Shown here in pieces: positions 19,008 through 55,090 of a stretch of 64,000 bases of DNA. The notes under the pieces were generated by a model, which was not told where the DNA came from, made no database searches, and saw nothing but the letters and a program-made list of their open reading frames with translations. Position 1 is the stretch's first letter. Each line of letters starts with the position of its first letter. The stretch comes from Vairimorpha ceranae (Eukaryota > Microsporidia > Nosematidae), in assembly GCF_000988165.1 (NCBI RefSeq), contig NW_020169308.1, positions 1 to 64,000 on the forward strand. The letters run 5' to 3'. Position numbers and translations under genes: made by a program.

Positions 19008-19079
19008 GGGGAATTAGCTCAGTGGCAGAGCGCTTCCTTAGCAAGGAAGAGGTCATGGGTTCGATCCCCATATTCTCCA
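19008..19079 (+). tRNA. tRNA-Ala (AGC)
   Basis: A full cloverleaf. The acceptor stem pairs GGGGAAT with ATTCTCC and is followed by discriminator A. The D arm is TAGCTCAGTGGCAGAGC. The anticodon arm is CTTCC-TTAGCAA-GGAAG, giving anticodon AGC at 19040-19042. The T arm is ATGGG-TTCGATC-CCCAT. It is 72 nt, with no intron and no encoded CCA. Confidence 0.97.
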
Positions 19080-27973: not shown

Positions 27974-29395
27974 TTAATTATTTTCTGTTCTGTTTATCAA
28001 TTTTGTCTTAAGATATTTTTCTGTTTCTTTTTCATCATTCCACAACTTTTCATAATGCTTTGTTTTAGGTGCATTTAGAGGCCTTATTTTACCGGTAATA
28101 TCTCTATCTTTGTAACCCCGATCCATTGTTCCACATATGCACCACATAACACCCGTATATCCATTAGGATCATTACCATCAATAGAATATTTATCATTAA
28201 GTTCAATACCAATTTTAACTGCTTCTTCTGGTGTTTTAGTCCATTTTACAAGCTGCTTGGCCCAGTACATTCTTACATATCCATGAATTTTATTCAATTT
28301 TAATAGTTGATTTTCCGCAGCATTCCAGAAACTATCATTCGTTTTACCGAACTCTAATTCTTCTTTTGTGTACAAATGCTCCCTTTCATCTTTTGCATGT
28401 TCGTGTAAGCTATCTCTTGCCCACTCAAGTGCACCCATAATGTTATCATAATCTTTATTGTGATAACAAAAATGTTCTGATGTTTCTCTCCATATAAATA
28501 TTTCTGCTACATACCCGTCAAGATTGTCTTTATCTTTTTTGTAAAATTTTTCATAAGCCAATTTAATAATTTTTTGCGGGCTTAAAATCCCAAGGTGTAT
28601 GTACGGCGATAGATTACTTAAGCCATCTACATCTGGATTATTGCGACATTCGTTATAAATATGAAACTTGTTATTAAAAAAATCATCCATAACTTTCAGA
28701 CCTGCTGAATATGTTCCTTGATAGTACTTTGCAGGTTCATATTTTGGAATATTGCATTTAAAACTCGACACCTTTTTTTTATCGTTAAATTTATGAGGTT
28801 CAAGAGTGTCCCAGGCATTTATTATAAATTTCATATTTTTGCTTGTAAAATTCGAATCATTTACGCTTTTTTCAAGTTGTAGATCGTCATATTCGTTCAG
28901 GTATTCGAAAAAATGTTTAAAAAGCTGAATTTTTACAGAACTGCTTGTTCTTTTGTAAACATCAAGAATTTTACACGGAACAATGTTATGACTGTCTATT
29001 TGAATACAAAACAGTTTATCTTTTGTACACAAATCCTTTATATTATTACAAAACGCAATATGCTCTCGTAAAGGAGACCAATCAAGAATTATATTTTTTA
29101 TTTTATTGGTTTTAACAAATGTGTTAACATTATCAAGGATTGTTAAATATAAGTTTTGTTTTATAGATTCTTTTCTTAGGTCTTCAATATTTTCAAGTAT
29201 TAAACTGTACTGTACATCATTACATTTAATATCTTTAATAGGGACACCTATAAACATTTGTGATTGATAGTGATATGATAAGTTATAAGCATAGTGAATA
29301 CAATGGTTGTTAAGTAGCCTTAAATCCCTCATAGAAATATATAGAACATTGCCTTTTATTGGAGAATTTGCTAATACTGTTAAACGATCTTTCAT
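27974..29395 (-). CDS. Class II CPD photolyase, 473 aa
   Basis: The N-terminal alpha/beta domain starts with NVLYISMRDLRLLNNHCIHYA, the class II counterpart of VLYWMSRDQR. The C-terminal FAD-binding domain has FIWRETSEHFCYHNKDYDN, then LEWARDSLHEHAKDEREHLY. Next come SFWNAAENQLLKLNKIHGYV, RMYWAKQLVKWT and DGNDPNGYTGVMWCICGTMD. The last block is diagnostic for class II enzymes. It reverses UV-induced cyclobutane pyrimidine dimers using FADH- and light. Photolyases of this class are known from insect-infecting microsporidia and protect spores outside the host. The upstream signal is a weak ACCTTA rather than CCC. Confidence 0.95.
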   Translation of the reverse strand: MKDRLTVLANSPIKGNVLYISMRDLRLLNNHCIHYAYNLSYHYQSQMFIGVPIKDIKCNDVQYSLILENIEDLRKESIKQNLYLTILDNVNTFVKTNKIKNIILDWSPLREHIAFCNNIKDLCTKDKLFCIQIDSHNIVPCKILDVYKRTSSSVKIQLFKHFFEYLNEYDDLQLEKSVNDSNFTSKNMKFIINAWDTLEPHKFNDKKKVSSFKCNIPKYEPAKYYQGTYSAGLKVMDDFFNNKFHIYNECRNNPDVDGLSNLSPYIHLGILSPQKIIKLAYEKFYKKDKDNLDGYVAEIFIWRETSEHFCYHNKDYDNIMGALEWARDSLHEHAKDEREHLYTKEELEFGKTNDSFWNAAENQLLKLNKIHGYVRMYWAKQLVKWTKTPEEAVKIGIELNDKYSIDGNDPNGYTGVMWCICGTMDRGYKDRDITGKIRPLNAPKTKHYEKLWNDEKETEKYLKTKLINRTENN

Positions 29396-36554: not shown

Positions 36555-36626
36555 TGCCAGATACGGGAATCGAACCCGTGACCAAGCGGCCACAACGCTA
36601 CGCTCTACCACTAAGCTAATCCAGCC
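36555..36626 (-). tRNA. tRNA-His (GTG)
   Basis: On the minus strand the acceptor pairs GCTGGAT with ATCTGGC and ends with discriminator A. An encoded G precedes it at 36626, in the place of the characteristic G-1 of tRNA-His. The D arm is TAGCTTAGTGGTAGAGC. The anticodon loop TTGTGGC gives GTG. The T arm is ACGGG-TTCGATT-CCCGT. No intron. It lies about 60 bp upstream of Sda1 on the same strand. Confidence 0.95.
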
Positions 36627-41456: not shown

Positions 41457-43529
41457 CTATTTATTAATATATTGTTCAATATCTTCCAGCGCATCACTTT
41501 TTCTTTTAAATATCTCGTAACAAGTATCTTCAAATATCCTTTTTGTGTATCTGTCTACAACACATTCTTTTACTTTACTTCTTAAATACTTTAAACCTTC
41601 CTGTGTATCATTTTTATAAATCTCGAAAAACTTATGTTTTCTAACAGTCATAAAAGCCATCCGTCTTGCATCTTTATAAGTCCTTTTCTTTAATTCTAAC
41701 ATCCATAAATCACTTTGTCTAGTGTCAACTACATTTCCGCCGAATAAATAAAAAATATTGTTCCATAGCACAAATTGATGTGCCGTTCTCGGCATAGGCC
41801 CGGCCGAATCCAGTTCTATTTCTGTCCATTTTCTAAATACAAGACTGTATGAATATAGTGCTGATATGTCAAGTCTGCTTTCTTTATCTTTTCCGTATGT
41901 AAAAAGAATAAGAATATCAGTGTTATATAAAATACTTCTTTGTAGTACACGACCATCAGTATAAATAGGAAAGGGAATAGTTTCATACACTGTGTTAGTA
42001 TCTAAAGAATACAAAGATATAGATTTAAAGTATTCTTTTCCCCTCTGTCCACCTACCACAGCAAGTGTATTGGGATATTCGGGAAGATTTATATGTAACA
42101 AGACATGTCCAAGTCTACCTTTTAAAACGGGAGAATCGTGCGATTGAATCGTAGAATCGAGAAGACGTGTCCATTTGGCCGACGATAATTTGTCATCGAT
42201 TTGAATTTTGTACAGTCCACCAAATGAATCATCAAAATTAGTAGTCTTACCACCAAACATATAAATTAAATTGTGCATGTAAACTAAATAGTGATCATAC
42301 ATGTTTGAGGCAACATCCCCTGTACTATTGTATTTTACCCATTTACCGTTATAAACCCATATATCTGAGCTACTAATTTCACCCGTTCTTTCTGATGTCG
42401 GTATATATTTACCTGATAAATATAACCTTTGTCCATCAGTACACATTTTATGACATGATCTTTTTCCAGGGGTATCCTGTAATGTAGTGGTAATGTCTTC
42501 TACATATGTAATAGTATTAGCACCACAGTGTTCTTTTTCTATTTCACTTTGTCGTGTTATATTAATTTCTTCTTCGAATGTGGACTGTCCTAATCTCACA
42601 CTACAGTTCATATTTTTATCACTTACTACATCCTTCTCTATTGTATCATCTTTATACGTATCTCTTTTATTTAAATCTTGGTATAAACACTTCCAACTTC
42701 CATTGTAATGCCACATATCACCTAATTCTTCGAGTCCATCCCACCCACCATACAAATAGATTCCTTTACTTGTACATACCATTTGATGTCCACCCCTGGG
42801 ACAAGGCCAATCTTTATTTTCATTGTTTTTAATTTCAGTCCAGTTACCGTAATACGCCGATTTTTTAACGTACACATCAAATTTATCATCATTTAGATTT
42901 AAAATGTAATTTTCTAACTTGTCAAAATCTTTATATTTTATTAACCTTTCTATTTCACTTTCACTATCAAGTATACATTCATTATACTTTTTTAAAATTT
43001 TTTTAACTGTCTTTATATCTTGTGTGCGCTGCCTTTCGTACATTATATCATTAAACCTCGTATTACTGATACCTTTAAGTTGTATAAACCATATCGAATA
43101 ATTAAAATTCATTCCCCAGGCAGCTAAAGGTTCAATTTTCATATATCTACTAATAATTAATTCATCTTGTATATATAAAAGATTATGTGTCTCATTTGTT
43201 GTATCATTCTTTAATCCACCATAAAATACTTCTATCCACGATTTTTTATCGTAAGATACACTTATTTTCATCTCTTTTATATTACAAACGTGTATTTTAC
43301 TAAATTTACCGAATGTTATTGTAGATACAACGGATGATTTATATTCTAGTATTATGTACTGTCTATGATCATTCGTAGTAGTAGACCACCGAGAATTCGC
43401 ATCGGATGGATTGTCAACTAATATGTTAGAAGGTTTATATGTAGAAGCGTATGAAGAATAACAATCTATTTTATATGGGATAGTCCAAAGAGTATTCTTA
43501 TTTCTTAGTGTTTCTAAAGTAATATACAT
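41457..43529 (-). CDS. Muskelin homologue (discoidin-like, LisH/CTLH, kelch), 690 aa
   Basis: Strong, collinear similarity to muskelin. The N-terminal discoidin-like domain (about 15-155) has YSSYASTYKPSNILVD, NSRWSTT, ITFGKFSKIHVCNIKEMKIS, GLKNDTTNETHNL and GMNFNYSIWFIQLKGI. The helical LisH/CTLH part spans about 165-225. A kelch propeller starts with PCPRGGHQMVCTSKGIYLYG and GWDGLEELGDMWHY. It continues with RSCHKMC, YDHYLVYMHNLIYMFGG, GRLGHVLLHI, PRTAHQFVLWNNIFYLFGG and a muskelin-type end (DLWMLELKKRTYKDARRMAF, VRKHKFFEIYKND, GLKYLRS). Muskelin is a substrate-linked subunit of the CTLH/GID E3 ubiquitin ligase. ACCC lies 14 nt before the ATG. An acidic low-complexity insert separates the first two kelch units. 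Confidence 0.93.
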   Translation of the reverse strand: MYITLETLRNKNTLWTIPYKIDCYSSYASTYKPSNILVDNPSDANSRWSTTTNDHRQYIILEYKSSVVSTITFGKFSKIHVCNIKEMKISVSYDKKSWIEVFYGGLKNDTTNETHNLLYIQDELIISRYMKIEPLAAWGMNFNYSIWFIQLKGISNTRFNDIMYERQRTQDIKTVKKILKKYNECILDSESEIERLIKYKDFDKLENYILNLNDDKFDVYVKKSAYYGNWTEIKNNENKDWPCPRGGHQMVCTSKGIYLYGGWDGLEELGDMWHYNGSWKCLYQDLNKRDTYKDDTIEKDVVSDKNMNCSVRLGQSTFEEEINITRQSEIEKEHCGANTITYVEDITTTLQDTPGKRSCHKMCTDGQRLYLSGKYIPTSERTGEISSSDIWVYNGKWVKYNSTGDVASNMYDHYLVYMHNLIYMFGGKTTNFDDSFGGLYKIQIDDKLSSAKWTRLLDSTIQSHDSPVLKGRLGHVLLHINLPEYPNTLAVVGGQRGKEYFKSISLYSLDTNTVYETIPFPIYTDGRVLQRSILYNTDILILFTYGKDKESRLDISALYSYSLVFRKWTEIELDSAGPMPRTAHQFVLWNNIFYLFGGNVVDTRQSDLWMLELKKRTYKDARRMAFMTVRKHKFFEIYKNDTQEGLKYLRSKVKECVVDRYTKRIFEDTCYEIFKRKSDALEDIEQYINK

Positions 43530-45334
43530 ATTGTATGAAGGGTAATTGCGTATTATATTTATAGGTACAAAATTCTTAAAAGGGGTAAAATGATTAATTT
43601 AAGTTTTTTACTATAAAGTACCAATCATTTTGTTTATTTAAACAAACAAATTATAAATCTTAACAACTAATTTACTATAAATAAATTTGCGATGAAAGAA
43701 GCATAAAGAAAAAACCAAACATTAATTACATATTAATTTTTAATACAATTATAGTCCCTTAATCTAAAAAAAATAAAGGTACTACTGATACTAAATTATG
43801 TTATATTATGTCTCTTTTAAATCTAATTTAATGATCAAATAATTTTTTTTAGTTTAATTATTAGGCTAGTTAAACAATAATAAGTGATAAATTATTTAGG
43901 TTAAAAAGAAATCTATTAAGTTATGTATATAATTATGATATTTTTTAACTTTTAAAAATTAAGCGCTTTATATCATTCTATTAGAAATGTAAATTATTAT
44001 TTGTGATAATTGATAGAAGGGCTGATAAAATTAAAGTTATTAGAACGCATTTTTAACTTATTTAAGTAGTTTTTTAATGAAACTGCTATAAGTTATGATG
44101 TTTTGAAGTGAGAAAAGTACGATATGGAACAAAATGATAGTAGGTTACTACACTATTAAATGTCTTTGCTAATTTCAGGTAAACTGTTGCGATGGAGAAA
44201 TATTTTTAAAAATGTTATTTAGGCATCTTTATTTATTTTACTTTTAGTTATCAATATACTTGGTTTAACATCTAAACCCACTACAGAAAATAAATTTACA
44301 ATTCTGTAGATTACAACGTGTAGCTTAACCTTTTTTTAAAATTTTTTATTAATAGTCAAATTTTATGAAATTTTAAAGCGTAATTTAAAATCTTCTAAAT
44401 CTTTACATTTATTTTACAAGACTTCACACATTTATAAATGTTGTGTTTAATTATTTCTAAAATCATGTAAATAAGAATAGCACAAATATTTATTTTTATC
44501 CAATGATAGTGTGTAAATAATGCTTTTATCGAGTTATTATCTTATATAATTTTACAAGTACAATGCATTCGTAATATTCAACAAGATATTAAATAATAGT
44601 ATTTACCCTTAAATATTGAAATAAAAAATTTTTATTTCGTATTGTAAATAAATGCAGTTGTCACTACCTTTACACTCAAAAGGTAGAGATGGTTTTAAGA
44701 AGACTTAGGCTTAATAGATAACATTGTTTATTGATGTTATTAATTATATACTTCTTCTCTCACTCTGAAACATTACGTGTTTCAGGATAGGTCCTGTTCC
44801 ATACTATCAAATTTGAGTCTTTAATTTTATAACTGAAAAGTTTCTTGTTATTGGTGACAGTAGTTTTATTTAAATAGAATTTTATCTTTGTATTGTTTAA
44901 AAAAATCACTTTAGTTTTTATATTTTAATGATTATCTGTTAAATTGTTACAAGTAAACATTTGTCCCTAATATATAAAATAGTAAATTTATGTGTAATCA
45001 ACCTTTTTCTTAAAATTACTATATTTTTTTCTGTGAGTTTTGCGCAATGCTTATATCAGTTCATTTTTATCAATATATATAAAAAGTTTGAATCCAAATA
45101 AATTAATAATATTAACTAATTTTATAATAATTAATTTGTTTTATTGATTAATTCTTATTTAAGAAACGTCAATTTGTCAAATTATTTAAGTATCACATAT
45201 TATTTTCAGATTACATATACATCACATTTTCTTCTTTTAATAATCTGTTAATTTTATGCATAAACATAAATACATTTCTTTTCTACCTTTTTAAAATTTT
45301 TTATGTTTGTTTTTAAACATTTTTTCCCCTTAAA
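43530..45334. other. 1.8-kb intergenic region
   Basis: No gene found. The only structure noted is a pair of adjacent small hairpins at 44765-44797 (see findings). Confidence 0.35.
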
Positions 45335-49627: not shown

Positions 49628-49667
49628 TTGAGGGGTAAAAAAATAAAAATATTTTTTTAAAATGTAT

Positions 49668-49670
49668 CCC
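49668..49670 (+). promoter_or_regulatory. CCC motif that selects the second ATG of the first Trm4-like gene
   Basis: The longer frame begins at 49662, but CCC lies downstream of that ATG and three nucleotides before the ATG at 49674. The paralogue at 51967 begins MGFEEF, aligning with MGREEF at 49674, which supports the shorter start independently. Confidence 0.7.
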
Positions 49671-49673
49671 TTA

Positions 49674-51086
49674 ATGGGCCGTGAAGAATTTATAAGTTTT
49701 TATAAGCCACTGCTTAATTTTACAGATGATGAATGGACAAGATTTATAAATACAATGGAATCAAGATTACCGTCTGCTCTACGTATAACTAATACTAAAT
49801 TTAAAAATAAAATTGAAATTTTTTTTTTAAAAGAAAAACTTATTTCTAAAAATAAATTTTTTAGAGATGTGTACGATACAGTACATAAAGGAACAAGTCA
49901 TAAAGATTTTATTATTAATCAGACCAGTGTAGGACACATACAAAAACAAGAGATTGTAAGTATGTTACCAGTTCTTCTTATGGGCCTTAAAGAGAATCAC
50001 TCTGTTTTAGATATGTGTGCGGCGCCTGGTTCAAAAACGAAACAATTACTAGAGAAGGCTTCTCTGGTAGTAGCGAATGACTGCAGCAGTAAGCGATTAA
50101 ATATACTGATATCGGAAACTTGTAAAATTCCTCATGCATCGTATTTAGTTGTAAAACACGATGCGTCGGCTTTGCCTGTTTTTAAAACTGATTTCGATCG
50201 TGTGTTGTGTGATGTGCCATGTTCGGGCGACGGCACTGCACGAAAAAATCCTCAAATTCTCAACAATTGGAATATTGGTAGTGCTGCAAATTTATCAAAT
50301 TTACAGTACAGAATTCTTAAACATGCTATTAATTTTGTTAAAAGTGATGGTCTTATTATTTATAGCACTTGTTCGTTAAATCCTATAGAAAACGAACAGG
50401 TAGTATTAAAAGCCATTATGCAAGATGATCTTGAGATAGTAGATCTTAGAAAATTTATAGACCATAACATTAGTAAAGACTTTGTTATGAGAGATGGAAT
50501 AATAATTAAAGATGAAAATGGTTTAAGAACAAATTTTGAAGATTTAAAAAAGTGTATTAGGATTTATCCCCATGATAATGACACAGGTGGGTTTTTTATT
50601 GTAGGTCTTAAGAAAAAAAGCGTACAAGAAAAAGACTTTAGGCCTAAAATATGCAAAAATAATTTTTGTGAAATAACTGACGAATGTCGCAGTAAACTTG
50701 AGAAAGAATATTCCTTGGAGAAAAAAACACTAATTTGCAGAGGTAAAAATATGAATACGATTTATGAAACTACACCTGAAATTTTAAGTACTATTAATAA
50801 TAGTAAGTTAAATATCATGCACGTAGGTTATAAAATATTTGAACAATGTAATTTGAACTTGTCTGGTTATAGAATGAAAAATGTGTTTAATAAGAATTTT
50901 GATGTAGAGATTTCTGGAAGTGAACCGATTAGAGCTAAAATGGTGTATAAAGAATTTAGAAAGGGGAGTGTTGTAGTTAGGTTGGTAGATTTTGATGTGC
51001 TTATAGGAGGTTTTTCCTATGGAAACAAGATTAGTTTGTATATATCTAATAACTTACAAAAAGCTTTATTAGATTTTTTTAATTGA
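49674..51086 (+). CDS. tRNA cytosine-5 methyltransferase, Trm4/NSUN2 type, copy 1, 470 aa
   Basis: An RsmF/NOL1/NSUN-family enzyme. The N-terminal part has LPSALRITNT. The SAM-binding motif I is VLDMCAAPGSKTKQLLE and motif II-III is VVANDCSSKRLNILISE. Motif IV is FDRVLCDVPCSGDGTARKN with the PC cysteine, and motif VI is IYSTCSLNPIENE with the TC nucleophile. LPS-x-x-RIT at the start and DVPCSGDGT-x-RKN are typical of Trm4/NSUN2 rather than Nop2. The C-terminal 150 residues contain the PUA-like end (FRKGSVVVRLVDFDVLIGG). It methylates cytosines in tRNA. A second copy lies 880 bp downstream. Confidence 0.92.
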   Translation: MGREEFISFYKPLLNFTDDEWTRFINTMESRLPSALRITNTKFKNKIEIFFLKEKLISKNKFFRDVYDTVHKGTSHKDFIINQTSVGHIQKQEIVSMLPVLLMGLKENHSVLDMCAAPGSKTKQLLEKASLVVANDCSSKRLNILISETCKIPHASYLVVKHDASALPVFKTDFDRVLCDVPCSGDGTARKNPQILNNWNIGSAANLSNLQYRILKHAINFVKSDGLIIYSTCSLNPIENEQVVLKAIMQDDLEIVDLRKFIDHNISKDFVMRDGIIIKDENGLRTNFEDLKKCIRIYPHDNDTGGFFIVGLKKKSVQEKDFRPKICKNNFCEITDECRSKLEKEYSLEKKTLICRGKNMNTIYETTPEILSTINNSKLNIMHVGYKIFEQCNLNLSGYRMKNVFNKNFDVEISGSEPIRAKMVYKEFRKGSVVVRLVDFDVLIGGFSYGNKISLYISNNLQKALLDFFN

Positions 51087-51966: not shown

Positions 51967-53682
51967 ATGGGTTTTGAAGAATTTGCTCTATTTTATCGAC
52001 AAACTTTAAATTTTACTGAACAAGACTTTTTCAATTTACTTTCTATTTTAGAAAAACCTCTACCTTCGAGTTTAAGAATAACTGATACACCTTTTAAACA
52101 TTTAATCGAAAAAAGATTAAGTAAAATGAGAAAATCGCAGTTTTTTACTAATGTCTACGAAGCACCTAGACACAGAATTCCTAATAAAAAGTTTATTATC
52201 AACCAGACAAAAGCAGGGCACATACAGAGGCAAGAAGTTGTTTCTATGTTACCTGTTTTATTAATGGGAATGGAACCGTCTTTTAGCGTTCTTGATATGT
52301 GTGCCGCTCCTGGATCCAAAACAAAACAGCTGTTAGAGATTATTAATGATAAAGGATTGGTAGTATGTAATGAAGTAAAGTTTAAAAGGATGCGAATTCT
52401 TGTTTCTGAAACGTGCAAAATACCACGGCGGGGGTTTATGGTTCTAAGGCATGATGCATCTACGCTTCCTGTATTTAAAAAAGATTTTGACCGTGTTTTG
52501 TGTGATGTACCATGTTCGGGTGACGGTACAACAAGAAAAAATTATGGTGTAGTTCCTAATTGGTGTATAAATAATGCGCTATCTCTATGTGAATTACAAT
52601 TTAGTATATTAAAGAATGCAATTAATTTTGTTAAAGATGATGGTCTTATAGTTTACAGTACCTGCTCGTTAAATCCAATTGAGAATGAGTGTATTATTCA
52701 AAAAGCTGTTTTAGAATTGGATTTAGAGATCGTAGATTTAAGAAATAATATAAATGAAAAATTTTTATCTAAAAAGTTTAAATTTAGAGAAGGATTAACA
52801 AAATGGAATATAAATATTAAAAATTATAATGGAATTAATTTTGAGCCTGTTAATGATAATATAGGATTGTCTAAGTGTATAAGGGTACTCCCACATGATC
52901 AAAATACAGGAGGATTTTTTATTACTGGATTAAAAAAAAAGATTAAAAGTTTAAGTGTATTGGATGGTAAAAATGTAAGTGAAAGTATAAATATATATTT
53001 ATCGGAAATTAATAATTATATAACAGAAAATACTAATAATCTATTAGAAAATACTAATAATCTATTGAAAAATGATATGGAAGCAATAAAAAACAATATA
53101 AATTCAATAGAAAATGATATAATAAATGTAGCAGGAAATAATATTAAAATTAATGAAATAGATATTCAATTTAATGAATTAGAAGAATGCATTTCAGATC
53201 TTAAATTTAATAAAATTGATACAATAAAAAATAAAAAAGCACGGGGATTTTCTATAATTAGTGATGAACTAAGAGAAGCACTGTCTAAAGAATATAACAT
53301 TAAAGATAAAATTCTTGTACAAAAAAAAGAAGGAAGTATGTTTATATATGAAGTAAGTCAAGAAGTACTAGAAATAATGAATAATAAAAATCTAACAATT
53401 GACTTTTACGGGTATAAATTATTCGAAAAAAATAATTTAAATGAATCAGGTTACATGTTAAAGGCAGTACCAAAAGAAAGCAGTCCTGATTTTGAGATTT
53501 CGCAAAAACAACTAGCAGATATTTTATATAATGGTGAGTTACAATATGAATACAAAAAAGGATCAATCATTGTACTATTGAAAGATTTTAATATTATGGT
53601 TAGTGGACATTCAAATGGTGATCATATCACTTTAAATATAAATTATAAATTACAAAGAGCACTAAAAGATTATATTAAATAA
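51967..53682 (+). CDS. tRNA cytosine-5 methyltransferase, Trm4/NSUN2 type, copy 2, 571 aa
   Basis: CCC abuts the ATG (AAGCCCATGG). It is collinear with copy 1 over its whole length and keeps all motifs: VLDMCAAPGSKTKQLLEI, FDRVLCDVPCSGDGTTRKN (PC cysteine) and VYSTCSLNPIENE (TC cysteine). Both enzymes should thus be active. Copy 2 is about 100 residues longer, because of an Asn/Ile-rich insertion after the catalytic domain (about 335-430, with NTNNLLENTNNLLKND) placed before the C-terminal PUA-like domain. Fungi normally have one Trm4, while animals split activities among NSUN2, NSUN3 and NSUN6. Specialisation of the two copies is plausible but unproven. Confidence 0.92.
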   Translation: MGFEEFALFYRQTLNFTEQDFFNLLSILEKPLPSSLRITDTPFKHLIEKRLSKMRKSQFFTNVYEAPRHRIPNKKFIINQTKAGHIQRQEVVSMLPVLLMGMEPSFSVLDMCAAPGSKTKQLLEIINDKGLVVCNEVKFKRMRILVSETCKIPRRGFMVLRHDASTLPVFKKDFDRVLCDVPCSGDGTTRKNYGVVPNWCINNALSLCELQFSILKNAINFVKDDGLIVYSTCSLNPIENECIIQKAVLELDLEIVDLRNNINEKFLSKKFKFREGLTKWNINIKNYNGINFEPVNDNIGLSKCIRVLPHDQNTGGFFITGLKKKIKSLSVLDGKNVSESINIYLSEINNYITENTNNLLENTNNLLKNDMEAIKNNINSIENDIINVAGNNIKINEIDIQFNELEECISDLKFNKIDTIKNKKARGFSIISDELREALSKEYNIKDKILVQKKEGSMFIYEVSQEVLEIMNNKNLTIDFYGYKLFEKNNLNESGYMLKAVPKESSPDFEISQKQLADILYNGELQYEYKKGSIIVLLKDFNIMVSGHSNGDHITLNINYKLQRALKDYIK

Positions 53683-53941: not shown

Positions 53942-55090
53942 ATGCTATCCAACATCAAATCTATCTTACGATTTTCTTGTAATTTGTACAACGTTATAAA
54001 TATTTGTAACTTTAACAGTAGCTTTGTAGTATCTCCTTTAGCAATCCCAGGTGCTCTAAAAAATTATTCTTTTTCTGCAGATAAATGTGTAGCATTAAAT
54101 ATTGATAGCTTTTTAGGATGTAAAGACAATGGCAAAAAATTTGAACTAGAATATAAAGGTCTTATGGAACATTTGGTATTTGAAATTTATTCTAGATCTG
54201 CGAATTTAAGATTCAAGTCTTTGTTTGAAGTTTGTATATTCTTTAGAAACAAAAATGAATGTACTAAGAGTAAAAAGATTCCGTTTTCGAACACATTCTC
54301 TTTTCTTGTTTTGTTCGGTGATTTATCTTCTTCTAAACCTCTTTTGACTACTTTTAATGGTGTGCCGTACCGTGGTGCTGGAAATTTTTATGAAAATTGT
54401 TTTAAATCTCTTGATCCTAATGTCAATATATTTTTGGCTAGCAATTGCTTTATTTCTGGATATTGGTTAAATTCATTTGTAAAATCATTAGTACCTGAAG
54501 AATTTATTGGTTGTACTACAAAAATCGATGTGCATATGCTTCACAGGCAGGATGTATTTAATGTTTATCAAAACGAATATTTTACAAGTGTACAGATACG
54601 TTTTATGAAAAAAGAATTTTCTTTTATTGGTATACTTCCTCAAGAGGGTGTATCACTAAGTGAAGTTAATAACTATTTGCTTGAATCGAGATTTATTGAA
54701 AATATTACAAGTTTAATGAAACCTACTAAGTTAGATTTAAAAATTCCTCAATTTGCAATAAAATCTAATATTGATATTAAGAATGTACTTTTAGAAGTAG
54801 ATCAGAATAATACAAATAGTGATCTTAAAAGCATGTTGGAGAATTGTGATTTAAAAAATTTTCCTGGTTTATTTCAAGTTTTAGAATTCAGGTTTTGTAA
54901 AGACGGCGTAAATATCTCTGATATGAATACATGTAGTACAGGCATGAAGGAATCTTTAGAAGATGAAGACTTATTAGTACACTTTAATCGTTCATTTTTA
55001 TTTGTAGTTGTTAGAGAGTCCAGATACAATGAAAAAAATTATCATCTTCCTCTTATTATGGGAACGTATACAGGTTCTATAAATGAATGA
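53942..55090 (+). CDS. Serpin-fold protein, 382 aa
   Basis: TACCCC precedes the ATG by two bases. It starts like a serpin at helices A-B (ILRFSCNLYNVI, then SSFVVSPLAIPGALKNY, corresponding to N-x-x-x-SP-x-S-I). The middle has VQIRFMKKEFSFIGILPQEG (s3C and the M-x-x-I-LP segment) and LDLKIPQFAIKSNIDIKNVL (the v-x-LPKF strand). The end is FNRSFLFVVVRE...PLIMGTYTG, which is strand s4B/s5B with L-F-x-G. The reactive-centre region (about 325-350) lacks the small-residue hinge (E-G-T-E-A-A) of inhibitory serpins: it reads CKDGVNISDMNTCSTGMKES. No signal peptide is obvious. Serpins in insect-infecting microsporidia are thought to act on host proteases, which is only an inference for this copy. Confidence 0.82.
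   Translation: MLSNIKSILRFSCNLYNVINICNFNSSFVVSPLAIPGALKNYSFSADKCVALNIDSFLGCKDNGKKFELEYKGLMEHLVFEIYSRSANLRFKSLFEVCIFFRNKNECTKSKKIPFSNTFSFLVLFGDLSSSKPLLTTFNGVPYRGAGNFYENCFKSLDPNVNIFLASNCFISGYWLNSFVKSLVPEEFIGCTTKIDVHMLHRQDVFNVYQNEYFTSVQIRFMKKEFSFIGILPQEGVSLSEVNNYLLESRFIENITSLMKPTKLDLKIPQFAIKSNIDIKNVLLEVDQNNTNSDLKSMLENCDLKNFPGLFQVLEFRFCKDGVNISDMNTCSTGMKESLEDEDLLVHFNRSFLFVVVRESRYNEKNYHLPLIMGTYTGSINE

What the first reader, a model, noticed from the sequence alone, without database searches (positions are those of the whole stretch)
41457..43529. Full-length muskelin in a reduced parasite genome
A collinear muskelin (discoidin-like, LisH/CTLH, kelch) is retained at 690 aa with strongly conserved blocks, while most neighbouring proteins are truncated or divergent. 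Muskelin works in the CTLH/GID ubiquitin ligase, so a minimal version of that ligase may exist here. The strength of conservation suggests an important and little-studied role in microsporidia.
Basis: partly seen in the sequence, partly recalled or inferred. Interest (0 to 1): 0.75.

Follow-up and report, generated by a model that had tools for sequence, protein, structure and literature searches.

The report
Muskelin with a probable CTLH ligase
A honey-bee microsporidian parasite keeps muskelin together with genes for several other parts of the ubiquitin ligase that muskelin serves, so a small version of this protein-destroying machine probably survives in a very reduced cell; the protein itself is an ordinary, vertically inherited family member.

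Summary
The ORF at 41457-43529 (-) is a real muskelin of 690 aa. The genome is almost certainly Vairimorpha (Nosema) ceranae. Muskelin is not unusual here: Encephalitozoon, Ordospora and other microsporidia have it, and they group together, apart from metazoa with bees, so host transfer is unlikely.

The genome also encodes RMND5/Gid2, MAEA/Gid9, Gid4, a CTLH-domain protein that is probably Gid8/TWA1, and the ligase's dedicated E2, UBE2H. RanBP9 and ARMC8 were not found, but the searches were too weak to prove absence.

In muskelin, three residues shown in human cells to read C-degrons are kept, and so is the CTLH-CRA docking module. The LisH dimerization motif is shortened and not recognisable.

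Most likely it is a substrate adaptor of a compact CTLH ligase. That microsporidia carry CTLH components but no identified RanBPM was published in 2013. The open point is how muskelin docks if RanBP9 is truly gone.

The parts
41457..43529 (-). muskelin coding sequence, 690 aa plus stop
   Evidence: tree
43059..43484 (-). discoidin-like (Muskelin_N) domain, residues 16-157
   Evidence: Pfam; 62 of 142 aligned positions identical to human
42957..43058 (-). eroded LisH region, residues 158-191 (single helix in the model; pLDDT under 50 at 179-189)
42861..42956 (-). CTLH helices, residues 192-223
   Evidence: profile 14.1 bits at 194-235; model
41685..42851 (-). kelch beta-propeller, residues 227-615
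   Evidence: Pfam; model and structural matches
42480..42665 (-). low-confidence stretch in the kelch domain, residues 289-350, an insert relative to human muskelin
   Evidence: pLDDT under 50; alignment to 8ttq breaks there
42741..42743 (-). W263 = human W291, C-degron pocket
   Evidence: alignment; function of W291 from PMC12871134 passages
42405..42407 (-). Y375 = human Y346, C-degron pocket
41937..41939 (-). R531 = human R517, C-degron pocket
41475..41678 (-). C-terminal CRA-like helices, residues 618-685; F674 lies where human F686 stacks on RanBP9
   Evidence: profile 26.4 bits; model

Best explanation
The gene encodes an orthologous, vertically inherited muskelin that acts as a substrate adaptor of a compact CTLH/GID ubiquitin ligase. 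Its kelch propeller reads protein C-termini (inferred from kept pocket residues). Its CTLH helices and C-terminal CRA-like helices plug it into the CTLH scaffold (inferred from kept domains). The scaffold carries the RMND5-MAEA RING pair, which works with the E2 UBE2H; Gid4 provides a second, N-terminal degron reader. Shown here: the genes exist and key residues are kept. Inferred: that the proteins assemble and act together.
For: Muskelin identity. Same genome: RMND5 (E 1.4e-15; reciprocal best PDB matches RMD5 2.5e-16 and RMND5A 9.4e-15; RING positions C262, C280, H282, C303, C306 identical in 25 of 25 aligned rows; that they bind zinc is recalled). MAEA (E 2.0e-4; reciprocal best PDB match MAEA 7.7e-4; 0 of 300 shuffles as good). 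Gid4 (109 bits; human Q132, I161, L171, E237, Y258 and Y273 kept, but L164, L240, G251, F254 and R276 changed: 8 of 13 positions looked at are identical; that these lie at the pocket is recalled). A CTLH protein over Pfam's cut-off (28.3 vs 26 bits). UBE2H (E 1.9e-47, 47% identity; next E2 3.9e-23; an acidic, serine-bearing tail is present). C-degron residues W291, Y346 and R517 kept in 20, 19 (one F) and 20 of the 20 rows that I grouped as microsporidian. RMND5 relatives are also named in V. necatrix and Encephalitozoon, which have muskelin.
Against: No RanBP9 or ARMC8 was found. In mammals RanBP9/10 is what holds muskelin, and wild-type Twa1 does not bind it (PMC13061415). The Gid8 assignment is weak: 16% identity to human GID8 and to the RANBP9 core, 17% to RMND5A; 12 of 300 shuffles as good against GID8, while MAEA scored better (2 of 300). 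The three pocket residues may be kept for folding, since those columns are invariant or nearly so in the whole family. Human Q679, which contacts RanBP9, is E in V. ceranae and Q in none of the 20 microsporidian rows. Nosema bombycis, N. granulosis and V. bombi have RMND5 relatives but no muskelin under those names in the 120 of 425 hits listed; I did not test whether they lack it. No expression or interaction data.
Confidence: 0.7

Rival explanations
1. The ligase is conventional: a RanBP9/Gid1 homologue (and perhaps ARMC8/Gid5) is present but too divergent to be found, and it holds muskelin in the usual way.
For: LisH-CTLH-CRA proteins of this genome diverge strongly: the one Pfam-recognised CTLH protein scores little above shuffles against human GID8 (12 of 300 as good) and RANBP9 core (30 of 300), and no relative but itself was found among 171 candidates. 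Single human queries would miss such a RanBP9. The aromatic at human F686, which stacks on a RanBP9 phenylalanine, is F or Y in 15 of 20 microsporidian rows.
Against: The SPRY domain gave no match at E <= 1 (but none of the 14 controls rang either). RanBPM was also not identified in microsporidia in 2013.
Confidence: 0.5
2. Muskelin has an independent role (for example cytoskeletal) and no longer works in a ligase.
For: LisH is eroded; RanBP9 not found.
Against: RMND5, MAEA, Gid4, UBE2H and a CTLH protein are all retained, and muskelin's CTLH and CRA docking parts are kept.
Confidence: 0.1
3. The gene was acquired from the insect host.
For: None found; other laterally acquired genes are known in microsporidia (recalled).
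Against: The 20 rows that I grouped as microsporidian are one side of a branch with SH-aLRT 100, as are the 13 metazoan rows, two bees and an ant among them (quick method, midpoint root, long branches and odd composition flagged, the window row included in the latter).
Confidence: 0.02
4. The gene is a decaying remnant.
For: Shortened LisH, reduced C-terminal tail, a 62-residue low-confidence stretch.
Against: Uninterrupted frame, 64% identity over 99% to V. necatrix, 46 columns invariant in the 50 aligned rows, V. ceranae included.
Confidence: 0.03

Closest known systems
Human muskelin (MKLN1; PDB 8ttq, 4oyu, 9snv)
   Same: Collinear discoidin, CTLH, kelch propeller and CRA-like C-terminus; C-degron residues W291, Y346, R517; aromatic at F686.
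   Different: LisH shortened and not recognisable; C-terminal tail reduced from 45 to 12 residues; Q679 is E; 62-residue low-confidence insert in the kelch domain.
Vairimorpha necatrix 'muskelin-like protein' and Encephalitozoon/Ordospora muskelins
   Same: Orthologues; same clade; same C-terminal shortening.
   Different: Encephalitozoon keeps a full-length LisH-like stretch; the two Vairimorpha species do not.
Mammalian CTLH complex
   Same: Muskelin, RMND5, MAEA, GID4, a CTLH-domain protein and UBE2H are encoded.
   Different: RanBP9 and ARMC8 not found; WDR26 and YPEL5 not searched; assembly untested.
Yeast GID complex
   Same: RMND5/Gid2, MAEA/Gid9, Gid4, Ubc8/UBE2H and a probable Gid8.
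   Different: S. cerevisiae has no muskelin (Gid7 instead) (PMC3797097) and has Gid1 and Gid5; FBPase, its classical target, is said to be lacking in microsporidia.
Drosophila embryonic CTLH complex
   Same: Muskelin is the substrate adaptor; Gid5 absent there and not found here.
   Different: Flies lack Gid4 and have RanBPM (PMC11933467, passages); V. ceranae has Gid4.

Membership tests
Muskelin | Muskelin_N discoidin-like domain | tested here: met
   200.4 bits vs cut-off 27
Muskelin | Kelch beta-propeller following CTLH | tested here: met
Muskelin | CTLH helices and CRA-like C-terminal helices | tested here: met
   profile scores 14.1 and 26.4 bits in place; model; Pfam's own CTLH model does not match
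Muskelin | LisH motif | tested here: inconclusive
   No match in place, 25 vs 33 residues, one low-confidence helix; the profile is also weak in Encephalitozoon, so its sensitivity is low
Muskelin | Orthology: groups with other muskelins of its lineage, not with host | tested here: met
CTLH/GID ligase | RING subunit RMND5/Gid2 | tested here: met
CTLH/GID ligase | RING-like subunit MAEA/Gid9 | tested here: met
   (weak E-values, but best match each way)
CTLH/GID ligase | Scaffold subunit TWA1/Gid8 | tested here: inconclusive
   One CTLH/CRA protein over Pfam cut-off; subfamily not resolved; unusable model, pLDDT 45.7; no PDB match at E <= 10
CTLH/GID ligase | Scaffold subunit RanBP9/Gid1 | tested here: inconclusive
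   No match to SPRY or to human RANBP9; neither search had a positive control
CTLH/GID ligase | ARMC8/Gid5 | tested here: inconclusive
   No match to human ARMC8; Arm-repeat search unanswered
CTLH/GID ligase | Dedicated E2 UBE2H/Ubc8 | tested here: met
   alignment
CTLH/GID ligase | WDR26/Gid7 | not tested
   not searched
CTLH/GID ligase | Physical complex with ubiquitin ligase activity | not testable with these tools
   needs biochemistry
Gid4 (Pro/N-degron receptor) | Vac_ImportDeg fold and pocket residues | tested here: met
   109.5 bits vs 27; 46 of 141 aligned residues identical to human, 8 of 13 positions printed identical, E237 and Y258 among them (choice of positions recalled)

The most novel reading that the evidence does not exclude
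V. ceranae has a CTLH ligase without RanBP9: a Gid8-like protein pairs with itself through LisH, one copy holding MAEA-RMND5 and the other holding muskelin directly. It would be a natural counterpart of the engineered dual-specificity Twa1_14, and muskelin would sit as a single adaptor (LisH eroded) instead of a dimer or tetramer. The hints are few: Twa1 homodimerizes without RanBP9 (PMC9932110); in one alignment the CTLH protein has Y where Twa1 has F152 and RanBP9 has Y (RMND5A also has Y), and L where Twa1 has bulky F160, but I, not RanBP9's F, at L147.
Probability: 0.2. Interest if true: 0.65.

Novelty: new member of a known kind. Interest (0 to 1): 0.42.

Why it matters
A substantial part of the CTLH gene set in a 4.6 Mb parasite genome suggests that the ligase does something that host supply cannot replace, and it cannot be the classical gluconeogenic switch if FBPase is lacking, as stated for microsporidia in PMC3797097. 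It gives a small natural system in which to ask which subunits are dispensable and what the ancestral job is. It also bears on the distribution given in print: muskelin is called metazoan-specific in PMC13061415 and opisthokont-restricted in PMC3797097, yet microsporidian and chytrid muskelins, and one from a jakobid (Andalucia), are in the databases.

Tried and rejected
Host transfer: rejected by the tree. Independent function with no other subunit: rejected. RMND5 or MAEA among the 15 RING_UBOX hits: I read ORFs at all 15 places and saw no LisH-CTLH-RING protein. The two RING subunits found are not in that list and were not among the CTLH hits (one hit at E <= 1), so Pfam's RING_UBOX and CTLH models miss diverged members here. 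Subfamily of the CTLH protein by pairwise scores: unresolved. Its single-sequence model (pLDDT 45.7) was not used for a fold search. Muskelin N114, a dimer-interface residue named in PMC9932110: my human sequence has T at 114, so I drew nothing from it. The whole-model fold match to 8ttq has a large rmsd (8.5), so I quote Z and rank only. The CCC signal upstream of start codons is present for 3 of the 6 genes (muskelin, Gid8-like, RMND5) and is not used as evidence. The controls of the family searches are 14 genomes in which eukaryotic families are hardly expected; CTLH and RING_UBOX rang in Methanosarcina, so control silence says little.

Sampling: one search listed 120 of 425 muskelin hits; I aligned 49 of the 120 with the window ORF and added three for the tree. 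The '20 microsporidian rows' are the window, 8 with microsporidian names, 1 labelled a louse contaminant and 10 unnamed rows that I put there by score rank before the tree; the tree then grouped all 20.

Not in print as far as searched: 'microsporidia' with 'muskelin' gave only PMC3797097, with 'GID complex' only the same; 'Nosema ceranae' with 'muskelin' gave none; broader term sets listed no other microsporidian CTLH paper among the rows shown (15 of 670, 3 of 3, 1 of 1). This covers open-licence PMC only. Papers: passages of PMC3797097, PMC12871134, PMC9932110 and PMC11933467; abstract, Introduction part 1 of 2, Results part 1 of 3, section 9 and Discussion part 1 of 2 of PMC13061415. Others were seen as search listings only.

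Full report

What the anatomy says. Against human, the discoidin domain is identical at 62 of 142 aligned positions, the kelch part at 97 of 309, the CTLH stretch at 14 of 48, the post-kelch helices at 16 of 63, the LisH stretch at 4 of 25. CTLH (14.1 bits) and post-kelch helices (26.4 bits) are recognised by profiles from the other muskelins; LisH is not. In V. ceranae and V. necatrix the LisH stretch is 8 residues shorter than in human, whereas E. cuniculi keeps its length, and the model has a single helix there with pLDDT under 50 at 179-189. The human C-terminal tail is largely gone, as in Encephalitozoon and Ordospora, but is partly kept in Astathelohania and in rows P0015-P0018. In human cells muskelin's kelch propeller reads C-terminal degrons through W291, Y346 and R517 (PMC12871134, a preprint, passages). 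All three are kept in V. ceranae (W263, Y375, R531). Among the 20 rows that I grouped as microsporidian they are W in 20, Y in 19 (F in one) and R in 20; among 30 other rows W in 30, Y in 27 (F in 3), R in 29 (K in one). Human F686, which stacks on RanBP9 (PMC13061415), is F or Y in 15 of the 20 rows and F in V. ceranae; Q679, the other contact, is E in V. ceranae and never Q in the 20 rows, but among the 30 other rows it is R in 17 and Q in only 9. So the reading pocket and the docking module look selected for, and the LisH dimerization module looks released; this is inference from sequence.

The rest of the ligase. Human RMND5A finds one frame at C48:11629-12009 (-), E 1.4e-15; the 322 aa ORF finds yeast RMD5 and human RMND5A best in return. 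Of 28 relatives at E <= 1 the top 19 are the protein itself, 8 named microsporidian proteins (Vairimorpha, Nosema, Encephalitozoon) and 10 unnamed ones; the other 9 are six Pneumocystis proteins, a chytrid, a grass and one unnamed. Five RING Cys/His positions (C262, C280, H282, C303, C306) are identical in 25 of 25 aligned rows (the ORF itself, 23 of the other 27 hits, and human). Human MAEA finds C13:54950-55174 (-), E 2.0e-4; the 309 aa ORF has MAEA as its best PDB match (E 7.7e-4), and 0 of 300 shuffles scored as high. Gid4 is clear: C81:7039-7491 (-), E 5.2e-31, with Q132, I161, L171, A252, S253, E237, Y258 and Y273 of human kept and L164, L240, G251, F254 and R276 changed (that these lie at the pocket is recalled). 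UBE2H is clear: C29:37824-38315 (-), 47% identity, E 1.9e-47, against 3.9e-23 for the next E2; it has an acidic tail with serines. One CTLH protein, C57:24769-25062 (-), 176 aa, passes Pfam's cut-off at 28.3 bits; by size, lack of other domains and elimination it is probably Gid8/TWA1, but pairwise scores do not decide.

What is missing. SPRY, human RANBP9 and human ARMC8 gave nothing. These are weak negatives: no control rang for SPRY, and the CTLH protein that does exist would hardly be found with human GID8 (12 of 300 shuffles as good). A search with the CTLH protein itself and one for Arm repeats did not complete by the server. WDR26 was not searched. A 2013 survey likewise did not identify RanBPM in microsporidia, which is independent support for its absence.

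Mechanism. Established work: muskelin is a CTLH subunit that binds RanBP9 with nanomolar affinity (PMC9932110) and serves as substrate adaptor in flies (PMC11933467) and humans. Inferred for V. ceranae: muskelin presents substrates by their C-termini and Gid4 by their N-termini to an RMND5-MAEA/UBE2H core. If RanBP9 is really gone, the only CTLH protein seen besides RMND5, MAEA and muskelin would have to hold both MAEA and muskelin. Wild-type mammalian Twa1 binds Maea only, but an engineered variant, Twa1_14, binds both, and Twa1 forms homodimers when RanBP9 is absent. The V. ceranae protein's interface letters are mixed: Y at the F152 position as in RanBP9 (and RMND5A), L at F160, I at L147. 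That is a lead, not evidence.

Origin. In a tree of 53 muskelins the 20 rows that I had grouped as microsporidian (the window, 8 named, 1 louse-labelled contaminant, 10 unnamed) are one side of a branch (SH-aLRT 100) and the 13 metazoan rows, with two bees and an ant, another (midpoint root, quick method; long branches such as Conglomerata, and an unusual letter make-up of 11 rows including the window's, are flagged). V. ceranae pairs with V. necatrix (100). Vertical inheritance is the simple reading. The louse-labelled row (Menopon gallinae 'UNVERIFIED_CONTAM', P0017) groups with microsporidia, so that louse assembly seems to contain a microsporidian contig.

Co-occurrence. V. necatrix and Encephalitozoon have both muskelin and RMND5 in the lists. 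Nosema bombycis, N. granulosis and V. bombi have RMND5 but no muskelin under their names in the 120 of 425 hits shown; whether they lack it was not tested, and it would count against a tight link if they do.

Verdict. What deserves follow-up is the composition of the complex and the missing RanBP9.

Noticed in passing
window 27974-29395 (-): 473 aa ORF with a weak DNA photolyase match (PF00875, 23.3 bits, below the cut-off of 26.6).
   Followed up: no
window 53942-55090 (+): 382 aa serpin (PF00079, E 2.2e-23) in a microsporidian genome.
   Followed up: no
window 49662-51086 (+) and 51967-53682 (+): Two RsmB/F-type methyltransferase genes close together on one strand.
   Followed up: no
window 19008-19079 (+) and 36555-36625 (-): tRNA-Ala(AGC) and tRNA-His(GTG).
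   Followed up: no
P0038 (Andalucia godoyi): A muskelin from a jakobid, outside opisthokonts, against the published restriction to opisthokonts or metazoa; it branches outside fungi and metazoa in the tree; contamination not excluded.
   Followed up: partly
P0017 (Menopon gallinae, UNVERIFIED_CONTAM): A muskelin on a 1.9 Mb contig of a louse assembly falls inside the microsporidian clade, while another Menopon muskelin (P0096) falls in metazoa: the assembly seems to hold a microsporidian genome.
   Followed up: partly
G000:C36:24600-24884 (+): A ubiquitin-conjugating enzyme match with one in-frame TAA; described only.
   Followed up: no
window 43540-43542 (-): CCC 11-13 bases before the muskelin ATG; also near the starts of the Gid8-like and RMND5 genes but not Gid4, MAEA or UBE2H. 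A CCC start signal in microsporidia is recalled from the literature.
   Followed up: partly
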